From NCBI GenBank assembly GCA_947169455.1, contig CAMVPV010000033.1, positions 1 to 8,732 of the forward strand: a DNA stretch of 8,732 nucleotides. The letters run 5' to 3'. The notes below the pieces were generated by a model. The model had not been told where the DNA came from, did no database searches, and saw nothing but the letters and a program-made list of their open reading frames with translations. Below, piece by piece: positions 1 to 8,732 of this stretch. The position numbers were made by a program, and so were the translations under genes. Source of the stretch: an uncultured Clostridia bacterium (lineage in GTDB: Bacteria; Bacillota_A; Clostridia; Oscillospirales; Ruminococcaceae). The first letter of the stretch is position 1. Each line of letters opens with the position of its first letter.

Positions 1-3000
1 ATACTTGACACGGATATAATATTCGCCGAAGGTGAATTTGTAAGCGTGCCATCAATGGGCGGTGTGTTCGACGGGAACGGTCACAGCATAATAGGGGTGA
101 CCATAAAGGACACTGTCTCATATACAGGCGTTTTCAGATATATTGAAAAAACCGGTACGGTAAAGGATCTGAACGTCAAGGCGCGCATAGACATAGGCGG
201 AGGCGGGACAGACATCGGAGGCATCACGGGCGTGAACCGCGGCACCATACTGAACTGTTCATTCAACGGGACAGTACGCGGCAATGAGAACACCGGCGGC
301 ATCGCCGGTACGAACGAGGGGTATATCTCCGCCTGCGTGACCGAAGGAAATATCGAGGGTGAGCACACCGCAGGCGGCATAGCGGGTACGAATTCCGGTA
401 TAATAGTCGGGTGCGAGAACCGCGCAAAGATAAATACCGAAGCTGAGGATATCTCTATCGGGCTCGATAATCTCTCGGATTTCAGCGTTACGAACATAAT
501 ATCTCCCGAAAAGCTCACTGCATCCACTGATATCGGCGGCATTGCGGGCTTTTCGGACAAGACGATACTGCAATGCAGCAACTACGGCACGGTGGGCTAC
601 CCTCATTCGGGATACAACATCGGCGGCATCGCCGGTCGGCAGTCCGGCTACATAAGCGGCTGCGCGAACTTCGGCACCATTTATGGCAGAAAGGACATCG
701 GCGGCATAGCGGGTCAGTCCGAGCCGTTCTTCTCGCTTTTCGTATCGGTGAAGAACGCGGACGCTCTCAGGAGCGAGCTGCACGATCTGAACGGGAAGCT
801 CGACAGTACGCTTGAAGATATCGGCAGGAACAAGGACGTACTCGGCAGCGAGAGCGACGAGATCATCGCGTCGCTGAATGCACTGAAGGATATGAGCCAT
901 GAGTATATCAACGATATCGATACGATAGTAAATGACAATGTCGCTACCGTAAATGAACTTTCAGCGAGGGTCTCCGACCTCATTTCGATGACCGAACCCG
1001 TGACAGAGAAGCTCTCCGCGGCGGCGGAGAGCTATAAGAAAGCCATAGACGAACTGAATGAGGCAGCGCAGATACTTGGCGAATGTCTCGGTGAGTCCGA
1101 TGAGGCGATAGCGATGATAAAGCCGGTGCTTGACGATCTCGATGAGATCTCCGCACGGCTGAAGATCACCTCGGACGATCTTTCTGCATCGATAGGCAGC
1201 CTGAACAGATTCATGGGAGAACCGGAAGATCTGCGGGCAAAGATGGACGAGATCGACAAGCTGCTGAACGATGCCATAACCGAGTTCAACGATCTTTCGG
1301 TACGTGCCTTCAAGCTTTCGGAGGAGCTGGACAAGAAGCTTCAGCGTGCAAAGAACAGCGTAGATACGAGTGCGCAGTCTGCAATAATGGTAAGGGACAC
1401 ATATCTTGAATCACTTGCGCATAACCTTTCCGGTCTTGCGGATAATTCGCGCCAATACGCGGAAGCGCTCCGGCAGAAGAAGCTCAGCCTGCGCAGTCTT
1501 TCCGAAAGGATAAGGAACGGGGAGGTCAGCGAAGCCGACTGGGAAAGCTTGCGTGAGCTGATAACCGAGATAGTCGATTTTGACCCGGGCAGCAAGCTTT
1601 CCGATACGCTGGACAGATTTGCCGACGTACTTAGCAATATATCAGCCATCATCACCGAAGAAGCTCTCCCGGCGCTCTCCGGTCTTGAGCAGAGCATATC
1701 CGATGCGCTCAATTCCCTTGAGATACCGCATCCGTCCGACCCGGTGATCATACAAGGCAGACGTCAGCTCTCCGAGACGGTGTTCTATCAGAACATGGAT
1801 CTTCTGTATGATATGGTGGATTATCTCGACAGCGCGCTGAACGAAGCCGGCGAACTGAACACACCCGCAAACGACATCCTCAGCAGGATACGTTCGGCGT
1901 GGGATTTCCTCGATGAGGGCGAAGCCAAGCTCGTCGATGCGATATATATGTCTGTAAAGGCTTCCGACAGCGGCAGCATCGGCACATCGGCACTGAAAGA
2001 AGCACTAAGCATCTCTCATGATATAAACAGTTATTTCAAGCAGAAGGCGGAGCTCGTGTTCACGGGCGCGGGCGATGAGATAATCAGCAAGCGCGACAAT
2101 ATCAAGGTGCTCGCGGGAGAGTTCCTGAAAGCAGCGGACAGCTTCGGCAATGCGGGCGGAACTGCGGTAGATATCCTGTCAGCCGATTTTGCGGATATAA
2201 ATACAAGGCTCAGCAGTATATCGGACATCGTGCTCGATATGGTGGATGATATCCAATCGACCTCTACCGATATAGCTGACTACACGGAGGATATCTCCGC
2301 AGAGGACAGCGCAGGGCAGTCGATGGGCAAAATGATCTCATGCTGCAACTATGGCAAGGTCGAGGGCGATGTGAACATCGGAGGTATCACCGGAACCATG
2401 GGCGTTGACAACCGTCTTGACCCCGAGGGTGATCTCCAGCTGCCGCAGAACCTCACCACAAACTTCCTCTACACAGAAAAGACCGTTGTCCGCGACTGCA
2501 TCAACAAGGGAATGATAACCTCGAAGCGCAGCGGAGCCGGCGGTATCGTCGGGAATATGGAGACCGGCGCCGTATTCGGCTGTTCCGCATTCGGCAGCGT
2601 CACTTCCACCGACGGCAGCTATGTCGGCGGCATAGCGGGGAAATCTGCTGCGACGGTGATGAACAGCCGCGCATACTGCAGACTGAGCGGAGCAAGCTAC
2701 ATCGGCGGAATAGCAGGCAGCGGCCATGACATACAGGGCTGCCGCTCGTTCGTGAGCATAGACGGCGGCAGCGGCTTCACCGGAATGACAGCGGGTTTTG
2801 CCGACGGTGAGCAGGCAGACAATTACTTCGTTGAAAATGACAGCGGCATCGGAGGCATAGACGGCATCAGCTACAAGGGAAAAGCTGCACCTATGCCATA
2901 CGAGGAGTTTGTGCTTTCCTGCGATGTACCCTCTGATTTCAGCGAGATAGAGCTTCTGTTCGCAGTCACCGACGAGGACGGCAGCATAACCGAAAGCGTG

Positions 3001-3549
3001 CTTTCCTACAAGCTGAGCTACGGCGGGAGCATCGCGGACAGAGATATACCGGAGGTGCCCGCAAAGGAGGGGTATTTCGGAAAATGGGAGGATTTCGAGC
3101 AGAGCGATATCCGTTTTTCGAGGATAATATCCGCGGTGTATGAAAAGCTTGTGCTGACCATCGCTTCACCCGCTCCGCCCGACGGGATGCCTGTATTCCT
3201 TGCGGAGGGTCAGTTTGACGACACAGCGGAGCTTTCAGCAGAACAGAACGGCTCCGAATGGACAGTGACCCTTCCGGACGACGGCGCACACATCATACGA
3301 TATCTGAAAAAAACCAGACGTCCGCAGCTCATTGTGAACGGTGAGATCATCACATTTGAGAGCGACGGAAAGTATGTCGTATTTGAACAGAACGGCGGAA
3401 GCTTTACGCTGACCGAGACAGAGCTCCCGGATACACGCTTGTATATCTTTGCAGGCGCGGGAGCGGCAGCGGCACTGTTCATATCCGTCATCGCGGCAGT
3501 CAGGGCAGGAAAAAAGCACAGGGCGAAGAAAAACAGATCTCAGGCGTGA
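1..3549 (+). CDS. GLUG-repeat surface protein with long helical insert and C-terminal membrane anchor (5' partial)
   Basis: The frame is open from base 1 to the TGA at 3547-3549, so the true start lies left of the window; the in-frame GTG at 46 and ATG at 55 sit inside a conserved FDGNGH-type opening and are poor starts. Residues are counted from base 1. Order of parts: opening strand region 1-72; six GLUG repeats 73-240; mostly helical, coiled-coil-like insert 241-777; four GLUG repeats 778-932; InlB-like repeat about 998-1049; beta-rich segment about 1050-1140; transmembrane helix 1147-1167 (LYIFAGAGAAAALFISV core); basic tail ending KKHRAKKNRSQA. There is no LPXTG motif, so anchoring is probably by the helix with the bulk outside the cell. 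GLUG repeats are known from surface and secreted bacterial proteins; a role in adhesion or envelope binding is inference. The missing N-terminus should hold a signal peptide. The gene converges on the minus-strand operon to its right. Confidence 0.93.
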   Translation: MLDTDIIFAEGEFVSVPSMGGVFDGNGHSIIGVTIKDTVSYTGVFRYIEKTGTVKDLNVKARIDIGGGGTDIGGITGVNRGTILNCSFNGTVRGNENTGGIAGTNEGYISACVTEGNIEGEHTAGGIAGTNSGIIVGCENRAKINTEAEDISIGLDNLSDFSVTNIISPEKLTASTDIGGIAGFSDKTILQCSNYGTVGYPHSGYNIGGIAGRQSGYISGCANFGTIYGRKDIGGIAGQSEPFFSLFVSVKNADALRSELHDLNGKLDSTLEDIGRNKDVLGSESDEIIASLNALKDMSHEYINDIDTIVNDNVATVNELSARVSDLISMTEPVTEKLSAAAESYKKAIDELNEAAQILGECLGESDEAIAMIKPVLDDLDEISARLKITSDDLSASIGSLNRFMGEPEDLRAKMDEIDKLLNDAITEFNDLSVRAFKLSEELDKKLQRAKNSVDTSAQSAIMVRDTYLESLAHNLSGLADNSRQYAEALRQKKLSLRSLSERIRNGEVSEADWESLRELITEIVDFDPGSKLSDTLDRFADVLSNISAIITEEALPALSGLEQSISDALNSLEIPHPSDPVIIQGRRQLSETVFYQNMDLLYDMVDYLDSALNEAGELNTPANDILSRIRSAWDFLDEGEAKLVDAIYMSVKASDSGSIGTSALKEALSISHDINSYFKQKAELVFTGAGDEIISKRDNIKVLAGEFLKAADSFGNAGGTAVDILSADFADINTRLSSISDIVLDMVDDIQSTSTDIADYTEDISAEDSAGQSMGKMISCCNYGKVEGDVNIGGITGTMGVDNRLDPEGDLQLPQNLTTNFLYTEKTVVRDCINKGMITSKRSGAGGIVGNMETGAVFGCSAFGSVTSTDGSYVGGIAGKSAATVMNSRAYCRLSGASYIGGIAGSGHDIQGCRSFVSIDGGSGFTGMTAGFADGEQADNYFVENDSGIGGIDGISYKGKAAPMPYEEFVLSCDVPSDFSEIELLFAVTDEDGSITESVLSYKLSYGGSIADRDIPEVPAKEGYFGKWEDFEQSDIRFSRIISAVYEKLVLTIASPAPPDGMPVFLAEGQFDDTAELSAEQNGSEWTVTLPDDGAHIIRYLKKTRRPQLIVNGEIITFESDGKYVVFEQNGGSFTLTETELPDTRLYIFAGAGAAAALFISVIAAVRAGKKHRAKKNRSQA
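217..720 (+). repeat. GLUG repeat block 1 (six rungs)
   Basis: Six copies of a GGI(A/T)G core with the pattern GGIxGxxxGxIxxCxxxGxVxG: GGITGVNRG, GGIAGTNEG, GGIAGTNSG, GGIAGFSDK, GGIAGRQSG and GGIAGQSEP. The spacing is mostly about 27 residues, with a longer gap before the fourth. A cysteine recurs at the same point of most units (NCSFNG, ACVTEG, GCENRA, QCSNYG, GCANFG), as expected for a stacked inner ladder of a beta-solenoid. The 14-base string ggcggcatagcggg occurs exactly at 373-386 and 700-713 here and again at 2626-2639 in block 2, supporting growth by internal duplication. Confidence 0.88.
721..2331 (+). other. Helical coiled-coil domain inserted in the GLUG solenoid (about 537 residues)
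   Basis: Between GGIAGQS and MISCCNYG the sequence changes sharply from Gly/Cys-rich beta repeats to Leu/Ile/Asp/Glu/Ser/Lys-rich sequence with spaced hydrophobic residues, typical of long amphipathic helices. It has a single cysteine (in LGECLG) and few prolines. A proline-rich break at about 1723-1745 (IPHPSDPVI) may be a turn between two helical arms. The general style resembles extracellular helical regions of YhgE/Pip-type envelope proteins, but no specific homology is claimed. There is no transmembrane segment in it, so it should project from the solenoid on the outside. Confidence 0.75.
2332..2796 (+). repeat. GLUG repeat block 2 (four rungs plus a degenerate one)
   Basis: The repeat pattern resumes with ISCCNYGKVEG and continues through GGITGTMG, GGIVGNME, GGIAGKSA and GGIAGSGH, then a degenerate FTGMTAGFAD. 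The recurring cysteine is kept in CCNYG, DCINKG, GCSAFG and GCRSF. The first part completes the rung begun by GGIAGQS at the end of block 1, which shows that the helical domain is nested inside one repeat rather than linking two independent repeat domains. Confidence 0.85.
2992..3147 (+). other. InlB / Listeria-Bacteroides-type repeat
   Basis: The translation contains the spaced signature YGGSI..RDIPEVPAKEGYFGKW......I......ISAVYEK. This matches the usual layout of these small beta-grasp-like repeats: a glycine pair, a 'PxVPxKEGYxGxW' stretch about 12 residues later, and a terminal AVY. Such units commonly lie between a surface domain and the cell-wall-proximal part of Firmicute surface proteins. 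Only one copy is seen. Confidence 0.7.
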
Positions 3550-3585
3550 CACAGAACAACGAGCCTCCATAATTGTTGGTATGCA

Positions 3586-3628
3586 AACAGCACGGACAGC
3601 CCCCTAAAGGGCTGCTGTCCGTGCTGTT
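3586..3628. terminator. Hairpin between convergent genes, probable bidirectional terminator
   Basis: The arms AACAGCACGGACAGC (3586-3600) and GCTGTCCGTGCTGTT (3614-3628) are perfect 15-bp inverted complements around a 13-base loop. The loop can form a further CCC/GGG pairing. It lies 36 bases after the stop of the plus-strand gene and 30 bases after the stop of the minus-strand operon. Neither side has a strong T-run: the plus side continues acactt and the minus side TTTGCATACC, with the arm itself ending in TT. Termination is inferred from position and stem strength. Confidence 0.72.
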
Positions 3629-3658
3629 ACACTTAAACTCGTTGTAAAGCGGTTTTGG

Positions 3659-6600
3659 TCATTCAATGCCTTTGATAATAAACTCTTCCTCTTTTCTGAT
3701 ATAATTCTTCGGGTCGGGAGGTATTTTTCCGAGTTTCTTTGCAAGCTCCTCCCTGTTTTCGTAGGGCATATCATCGGGAAGTACCCCGCTGTAGTCGAAA
3801 TGCACGCTGTTAAGTCCGAGCTTCTCAAACTGATCATGAACGTACAGACAGAATGCGGCAAGATACGGAACTTCCATCCTCTCTCCGTCAACATCCAAAG
3901 TTGTTGTTCCGAAAGAACTTACAAAATTGATCGTATTCCCGACTGTCAGATCATATCCGTTGCTTGCGGTAAAATCAACTGCCGTACCCGAAAAAGCTTC
4001 GGTTGCGTAGGTCATAAAATTTGTGTAGTGTCTTTCGGGATTAGTTGTTTCAAACAGCCACATGACCGAACGCTGCATCCATGTCTGTTCGTTTACCGCA
4101 ATATTCGCCGCAAGCGTATATGCCCTCATTTTACGGGCGGTTTCTTTCATCAGTTTGCCGAATACTTTCCTCAGTTCGGTATTAAGACGGGTGTCACTGT
4201 AGATATTCTTGCGTATTATCCTTGCGGTTACTCCGACCGCAAGAGCCTTTATCGTATCTACAGTAATATCCTTTAATGTTCCTTGCAGTATTTTCCATAT
4301 ATCAAACTGACCAGTCTGAGAATTATAATTCTTATGGAAATTCTTTGCAATAATGAATACTATTAGACCTCCCGCAATAATTCCGATTTTTTTCGGTGTC
4401 GGCTTGATCGTCACCGCCGTGAGAAGTTCGGATTCGATTATCGTATAGGCAGTATCGAAGAAACGATCCTTTGTCCAGAAATCAACATAATCCCCGCTGC
4501 CGATCGCCCATTGCGTTGTAGTTCCGATCCATTCAAGGAAAGTATCTTTCAGTGCGCTTGCGATAGGTTCGGTGTAAACAGCCTTGTCTTTCAGCAGCAG
4601 ATACCAGCATATCGTAAACGCCATATCGACCATCCAGCGAACCGAACGTACCATAATGATATTGCATTCCATTATGTCGCAGTATTCACGATCAATTCCC
4701 GCTCTTTCCCGCCAGTATTTGTTTGCGTCCTCAAGCAGCGCACGTCGCATGAACCGCAGATGAACTGTACTGTATTTTTCGGGAGTGCGCAGCATTCTGC
4801 TGAGTTCAAGCGAATCGGATCTCAGCTTGCTGCCGAGTTGATTCACCTTGTCGAAATAAATCAACCTGCCCATTATCTGATCTGCGGGCATGAACACCTG
4901 ATTTGAATGATCCCGTACCTCTTCGATCGTGTCAAGCTGCAATAAACGTATTGTCCGCAGGATTTTCTTTACTTCGATATCACGGCTCTGTGCATACAGA
5001 TCAATACGTTCGCCCGTTATCCCGCACATAAGCTTGCAATTGAGATCCTGACCGTTTTTACGGAACGCAAATTCAACAAAACACATAAATTTTTCGCCGG
5101 AATTTTGTGTAACAACGGTATTCAGCGGACGGAACAGAAATTCGCCTTTTCCGTTATTCACGGGAGTTGAAGCGCTGCTGCCCGAAGCGATTATCTGATT
5201 CTGCGTCGGAACGGTCATATTTGTTTTGTAGATCAGTTCATACGCAAATTTTCTGTTCTGAGTGTCAAGGATCTCTCTGCACTTTTCGTCTGCCGGATAC
5301 GGATACTTAACTATTTCGGGCGGCTCGAATATTGCGTCCTTGTCGGTATCCTTTATCTTGGAGGGGTTCATATAAACCGCATAAGCCGCATATTCTATTG
5401 CTTTGAGGTCTGCGCTCGTACCATTTTCGGCGACGAACTCATTTGTCGGCAGACAGATATGATCTTTTTTAATATTGCTGCTGCTGTAAGGATCGGCAGG
5501 AATAAAGAAAATGCCTTTCGGAAAGAAATTGATCGTATACTTTCCGTCCGCCCGTTCACCCTTGCCGTTTGCAAACTCAAAAGACAGTGAATCTTTAAAA
5601 GGAAAATCACCTACAGGAAAATCACACGGTTTAGTTATATTTTCAAGTTTCATTTTATAAACATACGGATATTTCTCATTCCCGACAAATTCAAACGACG
5701 CATTTACATTTCCGTCGCTGAAAGATGAAGTCGGGACGTAAGGCTTTTCGGTGAAGAAAATAAGCCGCATATATATATCCCTTGTTCGGAAATAAGTATC
5801 GTCCTCGCCGAGCAGCATAACGCCGTCGCTTTCTCTTACGCCGTAAACGTTTCCGAAATCATTTTTGCTCACGAAAGTAACTATCGGATCACCCTGCACC
5901 TTGAACTTCACGTTGTTCGTGACAGTTCCGCCGGCACCCGTAAATCTGAAAGACAAAACGACTGTTTCAGCAATATTGTCATTTTCAATACGAATGAGGA
6001 ATTTCTTTCTTCCGTCGGGCATAACACCCGCATCATACAGTGTTATTGTATGAACGTCCGAAGATGCGGTGATACTGCCCGAAAGCTGACCGTTTATTCT
6101 TGCAGTGCCGTGTTTGTCGGTTTCGGTAATATAGGCGTAGATCTCGGGCGGAGGGTCTCTGATAAACGGAATCGTGTCGCCGAAATCTTTGTAGATGTAC
6201 ATATTATATGTTTTATCGTCGCTGTCGGGATCGTTAGAGTTTCCTGATGTTCCGCCTGCTGCTGCGCCTGCTGCGGCTGCCGCCGCTCCGCCTGCGCCGA
6301 GTGCGGTAATTGCAATGATACCGAGCTTTCCGCCATTTACGATCCTGTTCGGTATCGAAGTTCCCGAATCGACACCGGGAGACGGTTTTGCATCATTATT
6401 ATAGACGATATTCTCCTTGAAGCCGAACAGGTCATACATCCAGCCTATACCCATCGAACCCGCCTGAATACCCTCAACATCATACATCATATGAATATAG
6501 ATATTCTCGTCGGTCAGGTCGGTCATGCCTGCGTTGCGGCTGTATCTGCGGGTAATGCCGCCTTTGATGTCCACAAGCAGCCATCCGCCTTTCATATCCC

Positions 6601-7216
6601 AGCGCATGATGCTGTCAATATCATCAATGGATTTTATTTCCTTGAAATCATCTGTTCCGGGAAGATTTACGCTGAAATCCTCAACTTCACGAGCGGCATA
6701 GATGTTCACGGATTTTATTGCGATTTTTTCGGTATATGATTCTGTTTCATCCTTACCGTCCTTTTTTACTTGTTCAATATGCAGACCCGTATCAAGGACA
6801 GTCGGAGAAAAAGTTTCGCCGTAATAAAAAAGCGAATCCTCAAAGCGATTTTTCCCTGAGATATTTATATAATTTCCTGTGACTGTATATGCGGGAAGCT
6901 GAATTTCTCCGTCATCTTTGCTTAGAGGAGAAATAAATTCAAATGTATTGTCGCTGTAGAAATTCAGCGTTGCGGGTTCAAGACTGTGACCGCCGACAAT
7001 GGCGTTCTGTTTTGCCCAGCCCTCAAGGTCACCTGCATTCTTGAAATTGAGTGTAATACCGAGCCATCCGTCAGCGTTCAGGTTACAGGTGTAAGTGCTG
7101 ATAAGCTGTCTGTTCGCAGCTGAAACATTATAGGACATCATCGCTGCGGGAGAACCAATAAACAGTGAGACCGCAAGCAGAAAGTAACATATTCTCGTAA
7201 AGATATTCTTTTCCAT
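3659..7216 (-). CDS. Large exported protein of unknown function with Gly/Ala-rich segment (1185 aa)
   Basis: I do not recognise a named family. The ATG at 7216 overlaps the upstream stop codon (TAATG) and is preceded by GGGAGGG, so the start is well supported; the stop is TGA. Visible parts: signal peptide 1-34 (basic start, hydrophobic ICYFLLAVSLFIG core, plausible cleavage after NVSA); a beta-rich domain about 38-280; a hydrophobic Gly/Ala run about 295-322 (GAGGAAAAAAGAAAGG); an acidic linker NDPDSDD; a beta-rich, Ig-like-looking region about 335-570; a mixed domain to about 740; then a helix-rich C-terminal region 745-1185 with two hydrophobic stretches, about 862-877 (WMVDMAFTICWYLLL) and 943-958 (KIGIIAGGLIVFIIA). 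No catalytic motif was recognised. It is co-transcribed with the zinc-ribbon membrane protein, which suggests the two act together at the membrane. It could be a surface-exposed or membrane-tethered structural component; that is inference. Confidence 0.93.
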   Translation of the reverse strand: MEKNIFTRICYFLLAVSLFIGSPAAMMSYNVSAANRQLISTYTCNLNADGWLGITLNFKNAGDLEGWAKQNAIVGGHSLEPATLNFYSDNTFEFISPLSKDDGEIQLPAYTVTGNYINISGKNRFEDSLFYYGETFSPTVLDTGLHIEQVKKDGKDETESYTEKIAIKSVNIYAAREVEDFSVNLPGTDDFKEIKSIDDIDSIMRWDMKGGWLLVDIKGGITRRYSRNAGMTDLTDENIYIHMMYDVEGIQAGSMGIGWMYDLFGFKENIVYNNDAKPSPGVDSGTSIPNRIVNGGKLGIIAITALGAGGAAAAAAGAAAGGTSGNSNDPDSDDKTYNMYIYKDFGDTIPFIRDPPPEIYAYITETDKHGTARINGQLSGSITASSDVHTITLYDAGVMPDGRKKFLIRIENDNIAETVVLSFRFTGAGGTVTNNVKFKVQGDPIVTFVSKNDFGNVYGVRESDGVMLLGEDDTYFRTRDIYMRLIFFTEKPYVPTSSFSDGNVNASFEFVGNEKYPYVYKMKLENITKPCDFPVGDFPFKDSLSFEFANGKGERADGKYTINFFPKGIFFIPADPYSSSNIKKDHICLPTNEFVAENGTSADLKAIEYAAYAVYMNPSKIKDTDKDAIFEPPEIVKYPYPADEKCREILDTQNRKFAYELIYKTNMTVPTQNQIIASGSSASTPVNNGKGEFLFRPLNTVVTQNSGEKFMCFVEFAFRKNGQDLNCKLMCGITGERIDLYAQSRDIEVKKILRTIRLLQLDTIEEVRDHSNQVFMPADQIMGRLIYFDKVNQLGSKLRSDSLELSRMLRTPEKYSTVHLRFMRRALLEDANKYWRERAGIDREYCDIMECNIIMVRSVRWMVDMAFTICWYLLLKDKAVYTEPIASALKDTFLEWIGTTTQWAIGSGDYVDFWTKDRFFDTAYTIIESELLTAVTIKPTPKKIGIIAGGLIVFIIAKNFHKNYNSQTGQFDIWKILQGTLKDITVDTIKALAVGVTARIIRKNIYSDTRLNTELRKVFGKLMKETARKMRAYTLAANIAVNEQTWMQRSVMWLFETTNPERHYTNFMTYATEAFSGTAVDFTASNGYDLTVGNTINFVSSFGTTTLDVDGERMEVPYLAAFCLYVHDQFEKLGLNSVHFDYSGVLPDDMPYENREELAKKLGKIPPDPKNYIRKEEEFIIKGIE

Positions 7217-8322
7217 TATGCCCTCCCGTCTGCAATACGCGGCTTGAATATCCCGTTTATTATCGTGCCAAGCAGAATAAGACCGATCGGGATCAGGTAC
7301 GAATACTCAAACCTGTAAGACAGAATGCCTGCTGCGACCGCACCCGCCGCCATTCCGGCAAGATAAGAGCCGTATCTTGAAGCGATGATAATATCCTGAC
7401 CGCTGACGGGAGAGCGCATTTTTGAATGCGATGCGGAGATATTGAAAAGGAAACCTCCCGAATTTGTCACCGCCTGCAAAGCCATAAACGCTATGCTTAC
7501 GGCGACTGCCGTTCCGTCACTGCTGCCGCCCGTCAGGAGTTTATAGCATATCGCCGAAAAACCCGTGCCCATAAGCAGACTGCCGAAACTGAACCCGCCC
7601 GAAAACATTTTTCCGATACCTCTGAAAGCCGAAATAAATCCTCCGTGAAAGACTGACGAAAATGCGGCCGCTACGGCTCCCATTCCGAAAATTGAACAGA
7701 AGCCGCCGAAACCGTGACGGTCAAGACCGCCTTTATAGACTATCTTTGAAAGAATGTCGGTAAATTCAGTTGACTGTCCCGTATTGTCGATATGTCTGAG
7801 CCACATCCAGACCGCAAACATTACTACAGATGACAGGAGTGCTTTCGGGTGTCTGAAACTGTTTTTAATGCCGCTTAGCAGAAAATCAATGCCGCCGAGG
7901 ATTGCACCGAGTTTTCCGGGTATTCTTGCGGGGATATTCTGTTGAAATTGTCCGGATCGTTGAGATGTATTGCTGTCGGAAATTCTGTTGCCGAATCCGC
8001 CAAGATCTATCCATCCCGCAGACGGAAGAGCGTTTATGATCTGAACTGCCGCAGTATTGTTTCCTGCAGAAAAATTTCCGCAGTTCGGGTCATAATGACC
8101 CGATGTATTCGGGGAGATCATCTGCGGGAGAGAAGAATGATTCTGCGGCTGTGACGAGTTACCGTAAGTATTACCCGCGAAATTCCCTTGCAGGGAGTAA
8201 ACAGGTGGTGTATTCTGCGGCTGCTGTGTTTGCTGTACTGTTATAACGGCAGTCCCGCAACTCTTACAAAAATTATCATCATCTTCAAGAAGTGCGCCGC
8301 ATATCCTGCAATATTTTGCCAT
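7216..8322 (-). CDS. Zinc-ribbon polytopic membrane protein (368 aa)
   Basis: The ATG at 8322 has GGAGGG six bases upstream; the stop is TAA. An N-terminal zinc ribbon is formed by Cys5, Cys8, Cys19 and Cys22 (CRIC-x10-CKSC), a typical zinc-binding pattern of short Firmicute zinc-ribbon domains. Residues 28-130 are a Gln/Asn/Ser/Pro/Gly-rich, probably disordered linker. From about 160 on there are about six hydrophobic segments: 160-175 (VVMFAVWMWL), 205-225, 244-262, 270-287, 319-335 (Gly/Ala-rich LAGMAAGAVAAGIL) and 341-358 (IPIGLILLGTIINGIF). The ribbon, lacking a signal peptide ahead of it, should be cytoplasmic. The glycine-rich helices suggest close packing, but no transporter motif is visible. 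It is first in a two-gene operon and probably helps insert, anchor or regulate the large exported protein; this is inference from the coupling. Confidence 0.93.
   Translation of the reverse strand: MAKYCRICGALLEDDDNFCKSCGTAVITVQQTQQPQNTPPVYSLQGNFAGNTYGNSSQPQNHSSLPQMISPNTSGHYDPNCGNFSAGNNTAAVQIINALPSAGWIDLGGFGNRISDSNTSQRSGQFQQNIPARIPGKLGAILGGIDFLLSGIKNSFRHPKALLSSVVMFAVWMWLRHIDNTGQSTEFTDILSKIVYKGGLDRHGFGGFCSIFGMGAVAAAFSSVFHGGFISAFRGIGKMFSGGFSFGSLLMGTGFSAICYKLLTGGSSDGTAVAVSIAFMALQAVTNSGGFLFNISASHSKMRSPVSGQDIIIASRYGSYLAGMAAGAVAAGILSYRFEYSYLIPIGLILLGTIINGIFKPRIADGRA
7221..7227 (-). promoter_or_regulatory. Ribosome binding site of the large exported protein, inside the upstream gene
   Basis: On the minus strand GGGAGGG is followed by CATA and then the ATG at 7216. 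It lies within the last codons of the zinc-ribbon gene, whose TAA shares its final A with this ATG. A strong site plus a one-base overlap points to translational coupling with independent re-initiation. Confidence 0.85.
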
Positions 8323-8574: not shown

Positions 8575-8617
8575 AAAAAAATATGCGGTCAGTCTGTTAT
8601 CCTACAGACTGACCGCA
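8575..8617 (-). terminator. Strong leftward intrinsic terminator
   Basis: The arms TGCGGTCAGTCTGT (8584-8597) and ACAGACTGACCGCA (8604-8617) form a perfect 14-bp stem with a six-base loop. On the minus strand the stem is followed directly by TATTTTTTT (8583-8575), the classic T-run. The plus strand has no T-run after the stem. It therefore ends a minus-strand transcript arriving from the right, 19 bases after the stop codon at 8637-8639. Confidence 0.88.
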
Positions 8618-8636: not shown

Positions 8637-8732
8637 TCATCCCTCTTGAAACAGTCCACTCGGACTATAACGTTCCTTCGGACTATAACGTTCCTTCGGA
8701 CTATAACGTTCCTTCGGAACGTTTATCAATTC
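8637..8732 (-). CDS. Probable C-terminal end of a gene entering from the right (partial)
   Basis: Only one minus-strand frame is open from the window edge: 31 codons ending in TGA at 8639-8637, translating as ELINVP, then three KERYSP units, then SGLFQEG. The other two frames stop close to the edge. The stop is followed 19 bases later by a strong terminator of the same orientation, which is the layout of a gene end. The tail is charged and repetitive and looks like a disordered extension; nothing can be said of the protein's function. The alternative is a non-coding intergenic repeat that happens to be open in this frame. Confidence 0.5.
   Translation of the reverse strand, partial: ELINVPKERYSPKERYSPKERYSPSGLFQEG
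8661..8714. repeat. Three tandem 18-bp direct repeats
   Basis: The unit CGGACTATAACGTTCCTT occurs three times head to tail without a mismatch (8661-8678, 8679-8696, 8697-8714), and a fourth begins as CGGA. The period is a multiple of three, so it adds six residues per copy in any frame. At the right end the last unit forms a hairpin with the following bases: AACGTTCC (8705-8712), loop TTC, GGAACGTT (8716-8723). Identity of all copies suggests recent slippage. Confidence 0.9.

What the first reader, a model, noticed from the sequence alone, without database searches (positions are those of the whole stretch)
3659..8322. Uncharacterised two-gene envelope operon: zinc-ribbon membrane protein coupled to a giant exported protein
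The two genes share a TAATG junction, a strong internal ribosome binding site, a single upstream promoter and a downstream hairpin, so they form a closed unit. One partner is an internal zinc ribbon on about six glycine-rich helices; the other is 1185 residues with a signal peptide and no recognised family. Such tight coupling usually reflects a physical complex. This is the best candidate here for an undescribed system, possibly an envelope machine linking a cytoplasmic zinc sensor or scaffold to an outer component.
Basis: partly seen in the sequence, partly recalled or inferred. Interest (0 to 1): 0.7.

Follow-up and report, generated by a model that had tools for sequence, protein, structure and literature searches.

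The report
Zinc-ribbon partnered giant membrane receptor-like protein
Two overlapping genes encode a small zinc-binding membrane protein and a giant membrane protein whose outer part is swapped between some otherwise similar copies; relatives of this undescribed pair, some fused into one protein, occur in three bacterial phyla.

Summary
The two-gene unit is real, and beyond the zinc ribbon neither protein matches a described family. A signature domain in the large protein (residues 337-473, 'M..YKDFGDT') led to relatives in Bacillota, Bacteroidota and Actinomycetota. Of 65 such genes counted (window included), 4 carry a zinc ribbon in the same ORF and 49 have a zinc-ribbon gene close by; of the other 12, 5 touch contig ends, 1 has the partner hidden by my ORF caller, and 6 are true exceptions, all in genomes that also hold a paired copy. 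In 345 genomes of one order, all 8 with the large protein carry the six-helix partner domain (11 do). That domain is fused to the large protein in three ORFs of two genomes. Charge bias and ribbon fusions suggest that ribbon, Ig-like array and C-terminus are cytosolic, with about 260 residues outside: 'giant exported protein' is probably wrong, 'undescribed coupled system' is supported. In four pairs of copies the last 350 residues are 73-95% identical, the ectodomain core 16-24%; other pairs vary evenly. Best reading: an outside-in receptor with exchangeable ectodomains. Function is inferred, not shown.

The parts
7216..8322 (-). P0003, 368 aa: N-terminal zinc ribbon + linker + glycine-rich membrane domain (first gene of the operon)
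8251..8316 (-). zinc ribbon (residues 3-24; CxxC-x10-CxxC), presumed cytosolic
   Evidence: Pfam Zn_ribbon_3, 28.7 bits; side presumed from general knowledge
7219..7917 (-). glycine-rich, about six-helix membrane domain (residues 136-368), family A7
7214..7218 (-). TAATG stop/start overlap of the two genes
3659..7216 (-). P0001, 1185 aa giant membrane protein (second gene)
7148..7204 (-). signal-like first hydrophobic helix (residues 5-23); an internal helix in fused relatives
6326..7114 (-). ectodomain (residues 35-297), the part exchanged in some relatives
   Evidence: family; placement outside inferred
6269..6325 (-). second, Ala/Gly-rich hydrophobic helix (residues 298-316)
5798..6208 (-). 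YKDFGDT signature domain, Ig-like beta sandwich (residues 337-473)
5498..5782 (-). second Ig-like beta domain (residues 479-573)
4997..5497 (-). rest of the region shared by both C-terminal types (to about residue 740)
   Evidence: HHalign, 349 columns
3659..4996 (-). type-B, mostly helical C-terminal module (residues 741-1185), no known family; D864, A866 and K990 identical in 12 of 12 type-B proteins
3581..3632 (.). strong hairpin between the convergent genes (possible two-way terminator)
8584..8617 (-). hairpin with T tail upstream of the operon

Best explanation
A two-part membrane complex that works as an outside-in recognition receptor. The 368-aa partner holds its zinc ribbon in the cytosol and sits in the membrane by about six glycine-rich helices, packed against the giant protein. 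The giant protein crosses the membrane twice: helix 1, a ~260-residue exchangeable ectodomain outside, helix 2, then two to three Ig-like domains as a cytosolic rod ending in one of at least two output modules (type B here, type A elsewhere). Binding of a ligand, neighbouring cell or envelope state by the ectodomain is passed through the helices to the zinc-ribbon unit and the cytosolic module. SHOWN here: conserved pairing, fusions, two C-terminal types, ectodomain exchange with a jump at helix 2 in some pairs, Ig-like fold. INFERRED: topology (charge bias, ribbon fusions), physical complex (from fusions). CONJECTURE: that the output is signalling, and what is recognised.
For: Pairing: of 65 genes with the domain, 4 fused to a zinc ribbon, 49 with one on the same strand with at most two other genes between, 12 without (5 touching contig ends; L141 has the partner by HMM; 6 true exceptions, all in genomes G007, G014, G019, G085 that also hold a paired copy); background 2 of 179 ORFs. 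Co-occurrence: 8 of 345 genomes have the domain, 11 of 345 the six-helix domain, all 8 among them, hypergeometric 3.6e-14 ignoring kinship. Fusions: L181_4 and L182_0 (zinc ribbon + six helices + giant protein, one genome), L132_5 (six helices + giant protein; ribbon separate), L188_0 and L133_7 (zinc ribbon + giant protein). Topology: Lys/Arg in the 20 residues after helix 2 mean 6.3, before 1.5; more after in 58 of 64; L188_0 and L133_7 have two clear helices between ribbon and Ig array. Exchange: four pairs with 16-24% in the ectodomain core, 55-80% in helix 2, 73-95% in the last 350 residues. C-terminal exchange: P0001 aligns with L129_0 over 48-452 at 33% (E about 4e-54), whose C-terminus is type A. 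Ig-like fold.
Against: No ligand, output or enzymatic activity is known. Ig-like arrays usually lie outside cells, and the structural neighbours are adhesins, cadherins and S-layer proteins. Six of 64 proteins fail the charge test: P0001 itself (1 after, 2 before), L138_4, L157_7, L161_2 and the fusions L181_4 and L182_0. In the three six-helix fusions seven hydrophobic peaks are strong but helix 2 is weak (17-residue means 1.36-1.45, below my 1.5 cut), so their helix count, and with it the side of the Ig array, is open; helix 2 is under 1.3 in 5 of 64 proteins. P0001 residues 944-960 are as hydrophobic as helix 2 and could be a third crossing. Exchange is not general: L150_6/L154_3, L148_5/L149_7, L143_2/L145_2 and L164_6/7 vary about evenly, and L134_3/L134_4 differ at both ends (C-terminal 350: 33%). 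The C-terminal model of P0001 is of low confidence (mean pLDDT 52). Among the relatives fetched P0001 has no close one (best 33% over 405 residues).
Confidence: 0.4

Rival explanations
1. Surface scaffold or adhesin: the Ig array lies outside and the protein is a rod-like envelope component, with the zinc-ribbon protein as its membrane anchor or assembly factor.
Against: Helix 2 is followed by more positive charge than precedes it in 58 of 64 proteins, and the ribbon-only fusions L188_0 and L133_7 have two clear helices between ribbon and array. The Ig fold is common and shows no side.
Confidence: 0.22
2. Antagonism system: a polymorphic-toxin-like protein exported through or with the zinc-ribbon membrane protein.
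For: Tandem copies, patchy spread over three phyla in gut and rumen genomes, modular ends, a hydrophobic T-G-containing stretch before the type-A end that recalls pre-toxin domains (recalled; no such family).
Against: In most pairs compared the C-terminus is the better conserved end (L134_3/L134_4 is the exception); no variable immunity-like gene was noticed next to it; no toxin family at cut-off in Pfam for the relatives scanned.
Confidence: 0.15
3. Phage-defence receptor: the ectodomain or the membrane unit senses infection and the cytosolic module acts.
For: Patchy distribution, duplicated copies, helix-turn-helix genes of ~590 aa near two Lachnospiraceae loci (for one of them a weak RmrA match, E 1e-4).
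Against: No PADLOC match for either window protein; the neighbours shown did not look like defence genes to me, but were not searched as a set.
Confidence: 0.12
4. Coincidental neighbours with unrelated roles.
For: The six-helix domain occurs in G167, G206 and G004 without the giant protein detected beside it.
Against: Fusions, and 53 of 65 fused or adjacent.
Confidence: 0.02

Closest known systems
N-terminal zinc-ribbon membrane proteins (TcaA/YvbJ type)
   Same: Cys4 ribbon at the N-terminus followed by membrane helix; the Bacteroidota partners (ribbon + one helix + outer domain) look alike in layout (layout of TcaA and YvbJ recalled)
   Different: P0003-type partners have about six helices; NCBIfam TcaA only at E 0.076 for relatives L134_7 and L128_4 and not listed for P0003; pairing with a giant protein
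Bacterial Ig-like adhesins and S-layer assembly domains (Sap, SbsC, invasin)
   Same: tandem beta sandwiches
   Different: no sequence match at cut-off (Big_3_2 in 3 of 25 type-A relatives, best E 0.0064); predicted cytosolic here; near-invariant YKDFGDT motif
Clustered protocadherins (analogy of logic only)
   Same: variable outer part on a constant inner part among tandem copies
   Different: the Ig-like array is predicted on the other side of the membrane here; no homology claimed
Polymorphic toxin systems
   Same: modular exchange, patchy spread
   Different: exchange is mainly at the N-terminal ectodomain; C-terminus conserved in most pairs; no immunity gene noticed

Membership tests
Pfam zinc ribbon (Zn_ribbon_3, PF13248) | score above the gathering cut-off and four Cys ligands | tested here: met
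   28.7 against 27 bits, residues 3-24 of P0003
TcaA family (NCBIfam NF053815) | match above cut-off (550 bits) | tested here: not met
   P0003 not listed; relatives L134_7 and L128_4 at 11.8 bits
Bacterial Ig-like domain proteins | Ig-like beta-sandwich fold | tested here: met
Bacterial Ig-like domain proteins | profile match above Pfam cut-off | tested here: not met
   no match for P0001; weak Big_3_2 in 3 of 25 relatives
Polymorphic toxin systems | conserved N-terminus, variable C-terminal toxin | tested here: not met
   mostly the opposite pattern; L134_3/L134_4 vary at both ends
Polymorphic toxin systems | adjacent immunity gene | tested here: inconclusive
   neighbours read by eye (listing cut for about five loci); no recurrent variable small gene noticed
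Known anti-phage systems (PADLOC-DB 2.0) | profile match | tested here: not met
   0 families for both window proteins
Pol-beta-type nucleotidyltransferase (type-A C-terminus only, not the window's) | h[GS][GS]x(n)DhDh signature and fold | tested here: inconclusive
   invariant D750 and D752 with a mostly [ST][GS][NS] stretch some 12-20 residues before; signature recalled; domain not folded or searched alone (one search covers 6-375 only)

The most novel reading that the evidence does not exclude
A new class of bacterial membrane receptor: exchangeable ectodomains are joined, at a boundary at a second transmembrane helix, to a cytosolic Ig-like rod that carries alternative output modules, and the whole works with a dedicated zinc-ribbon membrane subunit. 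It spans Bacillota, Bacteroidota and Actinomycetota and evolves by swapping both its outer and its inner end, a bacterial counterpart in logic to receptor families with variable outer and constant inner parts.
Probability: 0.33. Interest if true: 0.85.

Novelty: categorically new. Interest (0 to 1): 0.68.

Why it matters
If true, gut and rumen bacteria carry an unrecognised receptor system whose main parts lie outside the family libraries searched here, with a record in the sequences of what is swapped (the ectodomain) and what is kept (the inner rod). It gives a defined two-gene target, fused in some species, that can be cloned and tested directly; Butyrivibrio sp. NC2007 has three tandem copies with differing ectodomains.

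Tried and rejected
Searches for relatives: the protein search gave one remote relative of P0001 (P0002, 30% over 129 aa) and one of P0003 (P0004, 43%) (only about 8000 word-sharing candidates were scored in each); a second one with the domain alone gave only itself; genome and viral scans by peptide pattern gave no relatives; plasmids had no match to P0001 or P0002 and phages none to P0002 (P0001 was not searched there). The break came from a degenerate DNA pattern for the motif. Of its 82 genome stretches my rule kept 45 genes; an HMM found nine more in the same loci (L048, L050, L053, L061, L064, L066, L073, L086, L093) that the rule had dropped. The other stretches, and the 12 viral ones, looked like chance matches when I read their translations. 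Alignment A3 holds 38 of the 45 plus the window; seven (near-copies or fragments) were left out.

Rows lost before the count: L187 (one search lists a domain match there, but overlapping ORFs hid the gene) and L131 (contig end, no gene). Genes with the same last 60 residues were counted once. The 2-of-179 background is per ORF of 100 aa or more lying more than three ORFs from a counted gene; since up to three other genes per side were looked at, chance alone would give a partner to several percent of the genes.

Structure searches: the hits are to the Ig-like part; no C-terminal module was tested alone, so nothing is said about its fold. PDB by sequence: nothing credible with A3, A4, A6. A tree of the signature domain groups rows mostly by phylum, but the window's branch is very long (2.21) and its place unsure; I draw no transfer history from it. 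A pattern for the third recurrent gene failed and was corrected.

For this I lowered the receptor reading from 0.42 to 0.40, the novel case from 0.35 to 0.33 and the topology from 0.75 to 0.65, and raised the surface-rod rival from 0.20 to 0.22.

Papers: five searches for a described zinc-ribbon/giant-protein pair listed no paper on it by title; one on TcaA gave nothing useful. Only passages of PMC12419801 were read: they mention a two-gene zinc-ribbon/Lipocone pair, a different system. Subscription journals and preprints were not searched.
Full report
WHAT IS IN THE WINDOW. The window (no genome is held for it) carries two overlapping genes on the minus strand, a 368-aa zinc-ribbon membrane protein (P0003, 7216-8322) followed by a 1185-aa protein (P0001, 3659-7216), and a convergent 1182-aa GLUG/coiled-coil frame at 1-3549. 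Stop and start overlap as TAATG behind GGGAGGGC. A very stable hairpin separates the convergent genes (z -6.7) and another with a T tail lies upstream. Promoter-like sites are no more frequent than in shuffles. Apart from the ribbon there is no family: Pfam, NCBIfam, PHROGs and PADLOC list nothing for P0001.

FINDING THE FAMILY. Direct searches gave only remote relatives. P0001 and P0002 share 'M..YKDFGDT'. A degenerate DNA pattern for it was scanned over genome contigs (82 stretches); 45 genes passed a first rule and an alignment of 38 of them plus the window (A3) defines the domain: M, Y, K, F, G, D, T and a later F are identical in all 39 rows. The pattern itself demanded much of this motif; outside it, G21, A29, I31, L46, T47, V89 and F91 are near-invariant. 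Record titles name Prevotellaceae and other Bacteroidales, Butyrivibrio and other Lachnospiraceae, Saccharofermentans, Ruminococcus and an Eggerthellaceae genome, many from rumen or gut. The domain is rare and patchy: 8 of 345, 1 of 247, 2 of 246 and 2 of 120 genomes drawn from four orders, each count including the centre genome.

PAIRING. I fetched 54 loci around these genes, chosen by the large protein except L131, and called ORFs by script; in 52 of them, and in the window, the gene was called. Counted once per distinct C-terminus, 65 genes carry the domain: 4 are fused to an N-terminal zinc ribbon, 49 have a same-strand zinc-ribbon gene with at most two other genes between, 12 do not. Of these 12, five touch contig ends (L129, L138_8, L147, L155, L183), L141 has the partner's membrane domain overlapping its called start by HMM, and six are exceptions (L136, L158_11, L178, L184, L185, L186). 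The six lie in genomes G007, G019, G085 and G014, each of which also holds a paired copy. Of 179 other ORFs of 100 aa or more in these loci, 2 have such a ribbon. The reverse test used the six-helix domain without its ribbon (A7, 11 rows): 11 of 345 genomes match, and all 8 genomes with the large protein are among them (3.6e-14 if genomes were independent). Of its 15 matches, 9 lie beside a large-protein gene, 3 are cut by contig ends, 3 (one in G167, two in G206, one of them weak) have none detected on the fetched stretch.

FUSIONS. In genome G017 two ORFs, L181_4 (1730 aa) and L182_0 (954 aa, open at the end), contain zinc ribbon, six-helix domain, a further helix, an intervening segment and the YKDFGDT domain in one frame. 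In G029, L132_5 (1628 aa) joins the six-helix domain to the large protein, with a ribbon in a separate gene. L188_0 (G024, open at the end) and L133_7 (G026), 63% identical, join ribbon and large protein without the six helices. These are the strongest evidence for one complex.

THE PARTNER VARIES. A7 was sought in 23 genomes that carry the large protein and found in 18: all 17 Clostridia, and G004 (Prevotellaceae), where it lies elsewhere. It was not found in G015 and G875 (Actinomycetota order) or G025, G027, G014 (Bacteroidota); the other Bacteroidota genomes were not searched. There the ribbon commonly sits on one helix, sometimes with an outer domain that resembles a lipoprotein of the Butyrivibrio locus (L128_4 and L134_8, compared by eye). 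Even in Clostridia some copies have another kind of ribbon protein next to them (L134_6, L138_3). A third gene, ~210 aa with a 'KYRWxYE' motif and membrane helices, is in 11 of 53 loci (window included).

TOPOLOGY. Lys/Arg are more frequent after the second helix than before it in 58 of 64 proteins (mean 6.3 against 1.5), and the ribbon-only fusions L188_0 and L133_7 have exactly two clear helices between ribbon and Ig array. If the ribbon is cytosolic, as is usual for such ribbons (general knowledge), the Ig array and C-terminus are cytosolic and only the ~260 residues between the helices are outside. Against this, the six proteins that fail the charge test include P0001 and both G017 fusions, and in the three six-helix fusions the second helix is weak (17-residue means 1.36-1.45, after seven stronger peaks), so their helix count does not decide the side. 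P0001 944-960 could be another crossing. I put the topology at about 0.65.

MODULARITY. Some copies with nearly the same inner part have unrelated outer parts: L151_1/L157_10 (two genomes), L153_5/L153_6, L153_5/L153_4 and L133_5/L133_7 (same loci) show 16-24% in the ectodomain core, 55-80% in helix 2 and 73-95% in the last 350 residues. L134_3/L134_4 of Butyrivibrio sp. NC2007 share 92% of the signal-like helix, 15% of the ectodomain core, 77-85% of the Ig-like part, but only 33% of the last 350 residues. Other pairs vary about evenly (L164_6/7, L150_6/L154_3, L148_5/L149_7, L143_2/L145_2), and L127_6/7, L128_5/6 and L134_3/L134_5 are intermediate. The inner end is modular as well: a profile comparison of the window's type (12 rows) with the other type (39 rows), assigned by eye, aligns 349 columns (P0001 about 337-740) and then nothing. 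P0001's ectodomain and signature domain align with L129_0 (33%, 48-452), whose end is of the other type.

MECHANISM. A swapped outer domain on a conserved inner part, with a dedicated ribbon-bearing membrane subunit, fits a recognition receptor better than a secreted toxin (whose variable end would be the C-terminus) or a surface rod (which would need the Ig array outside). I give the receptor reading 0.40 and the existence of a complex about 0.85.

VERDICT. No description was found in five paper searches of an open-access library.

Noticed in passing
window 1-3549 (+): Convergent 1182-aa frame (5' end cut off): GLUG-type repeats on both sides of a long coiled-coil-like stretch, with a C-terminal hydrophobic helix.
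   Followed up: no
window 8660-8718: Perfect 18-bp tandem repeat (3.3 copies, TCGGACTATAACGTTCCT) near the window end.
   Followed up: no
L128_7, L134_1, L138_6, L181_8 and seven other loci: Recurrent ~210-aa membrane protein with a KYRWxYE motif near the large-protein genes, sometimes with its own zinc ribbon; the one scanned (L134_1) has no Pfam or NCBIfam family at cut-off.
   Followed up: partly
L134_2, L138_7: ~590-aa helix-turn-helix proteins in two Lachnospiraceae loci; L134_2 has only weak HTH and RmrA matches.
   Followed up: partly
L209 54-3430 (G004:C79): A six-helix protein without ribbon followed by an 859-aa signal-helix-helix protein without a detected YKDFGDT domain: perhaps a sister system.
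   Followed up: partly
L204 (G167), L205 (G206): P0003-like ribbon/six-helix genes without a detected large-protein gene, in L204 near another ribbon protein of 840 aa.
   Followed up: partly
L138_5: Zinc ribbon fused to what looks like a PrsW-type membrane protease, next to a large-protein gene (resemblance recalled, not tested).
   Followed up: no
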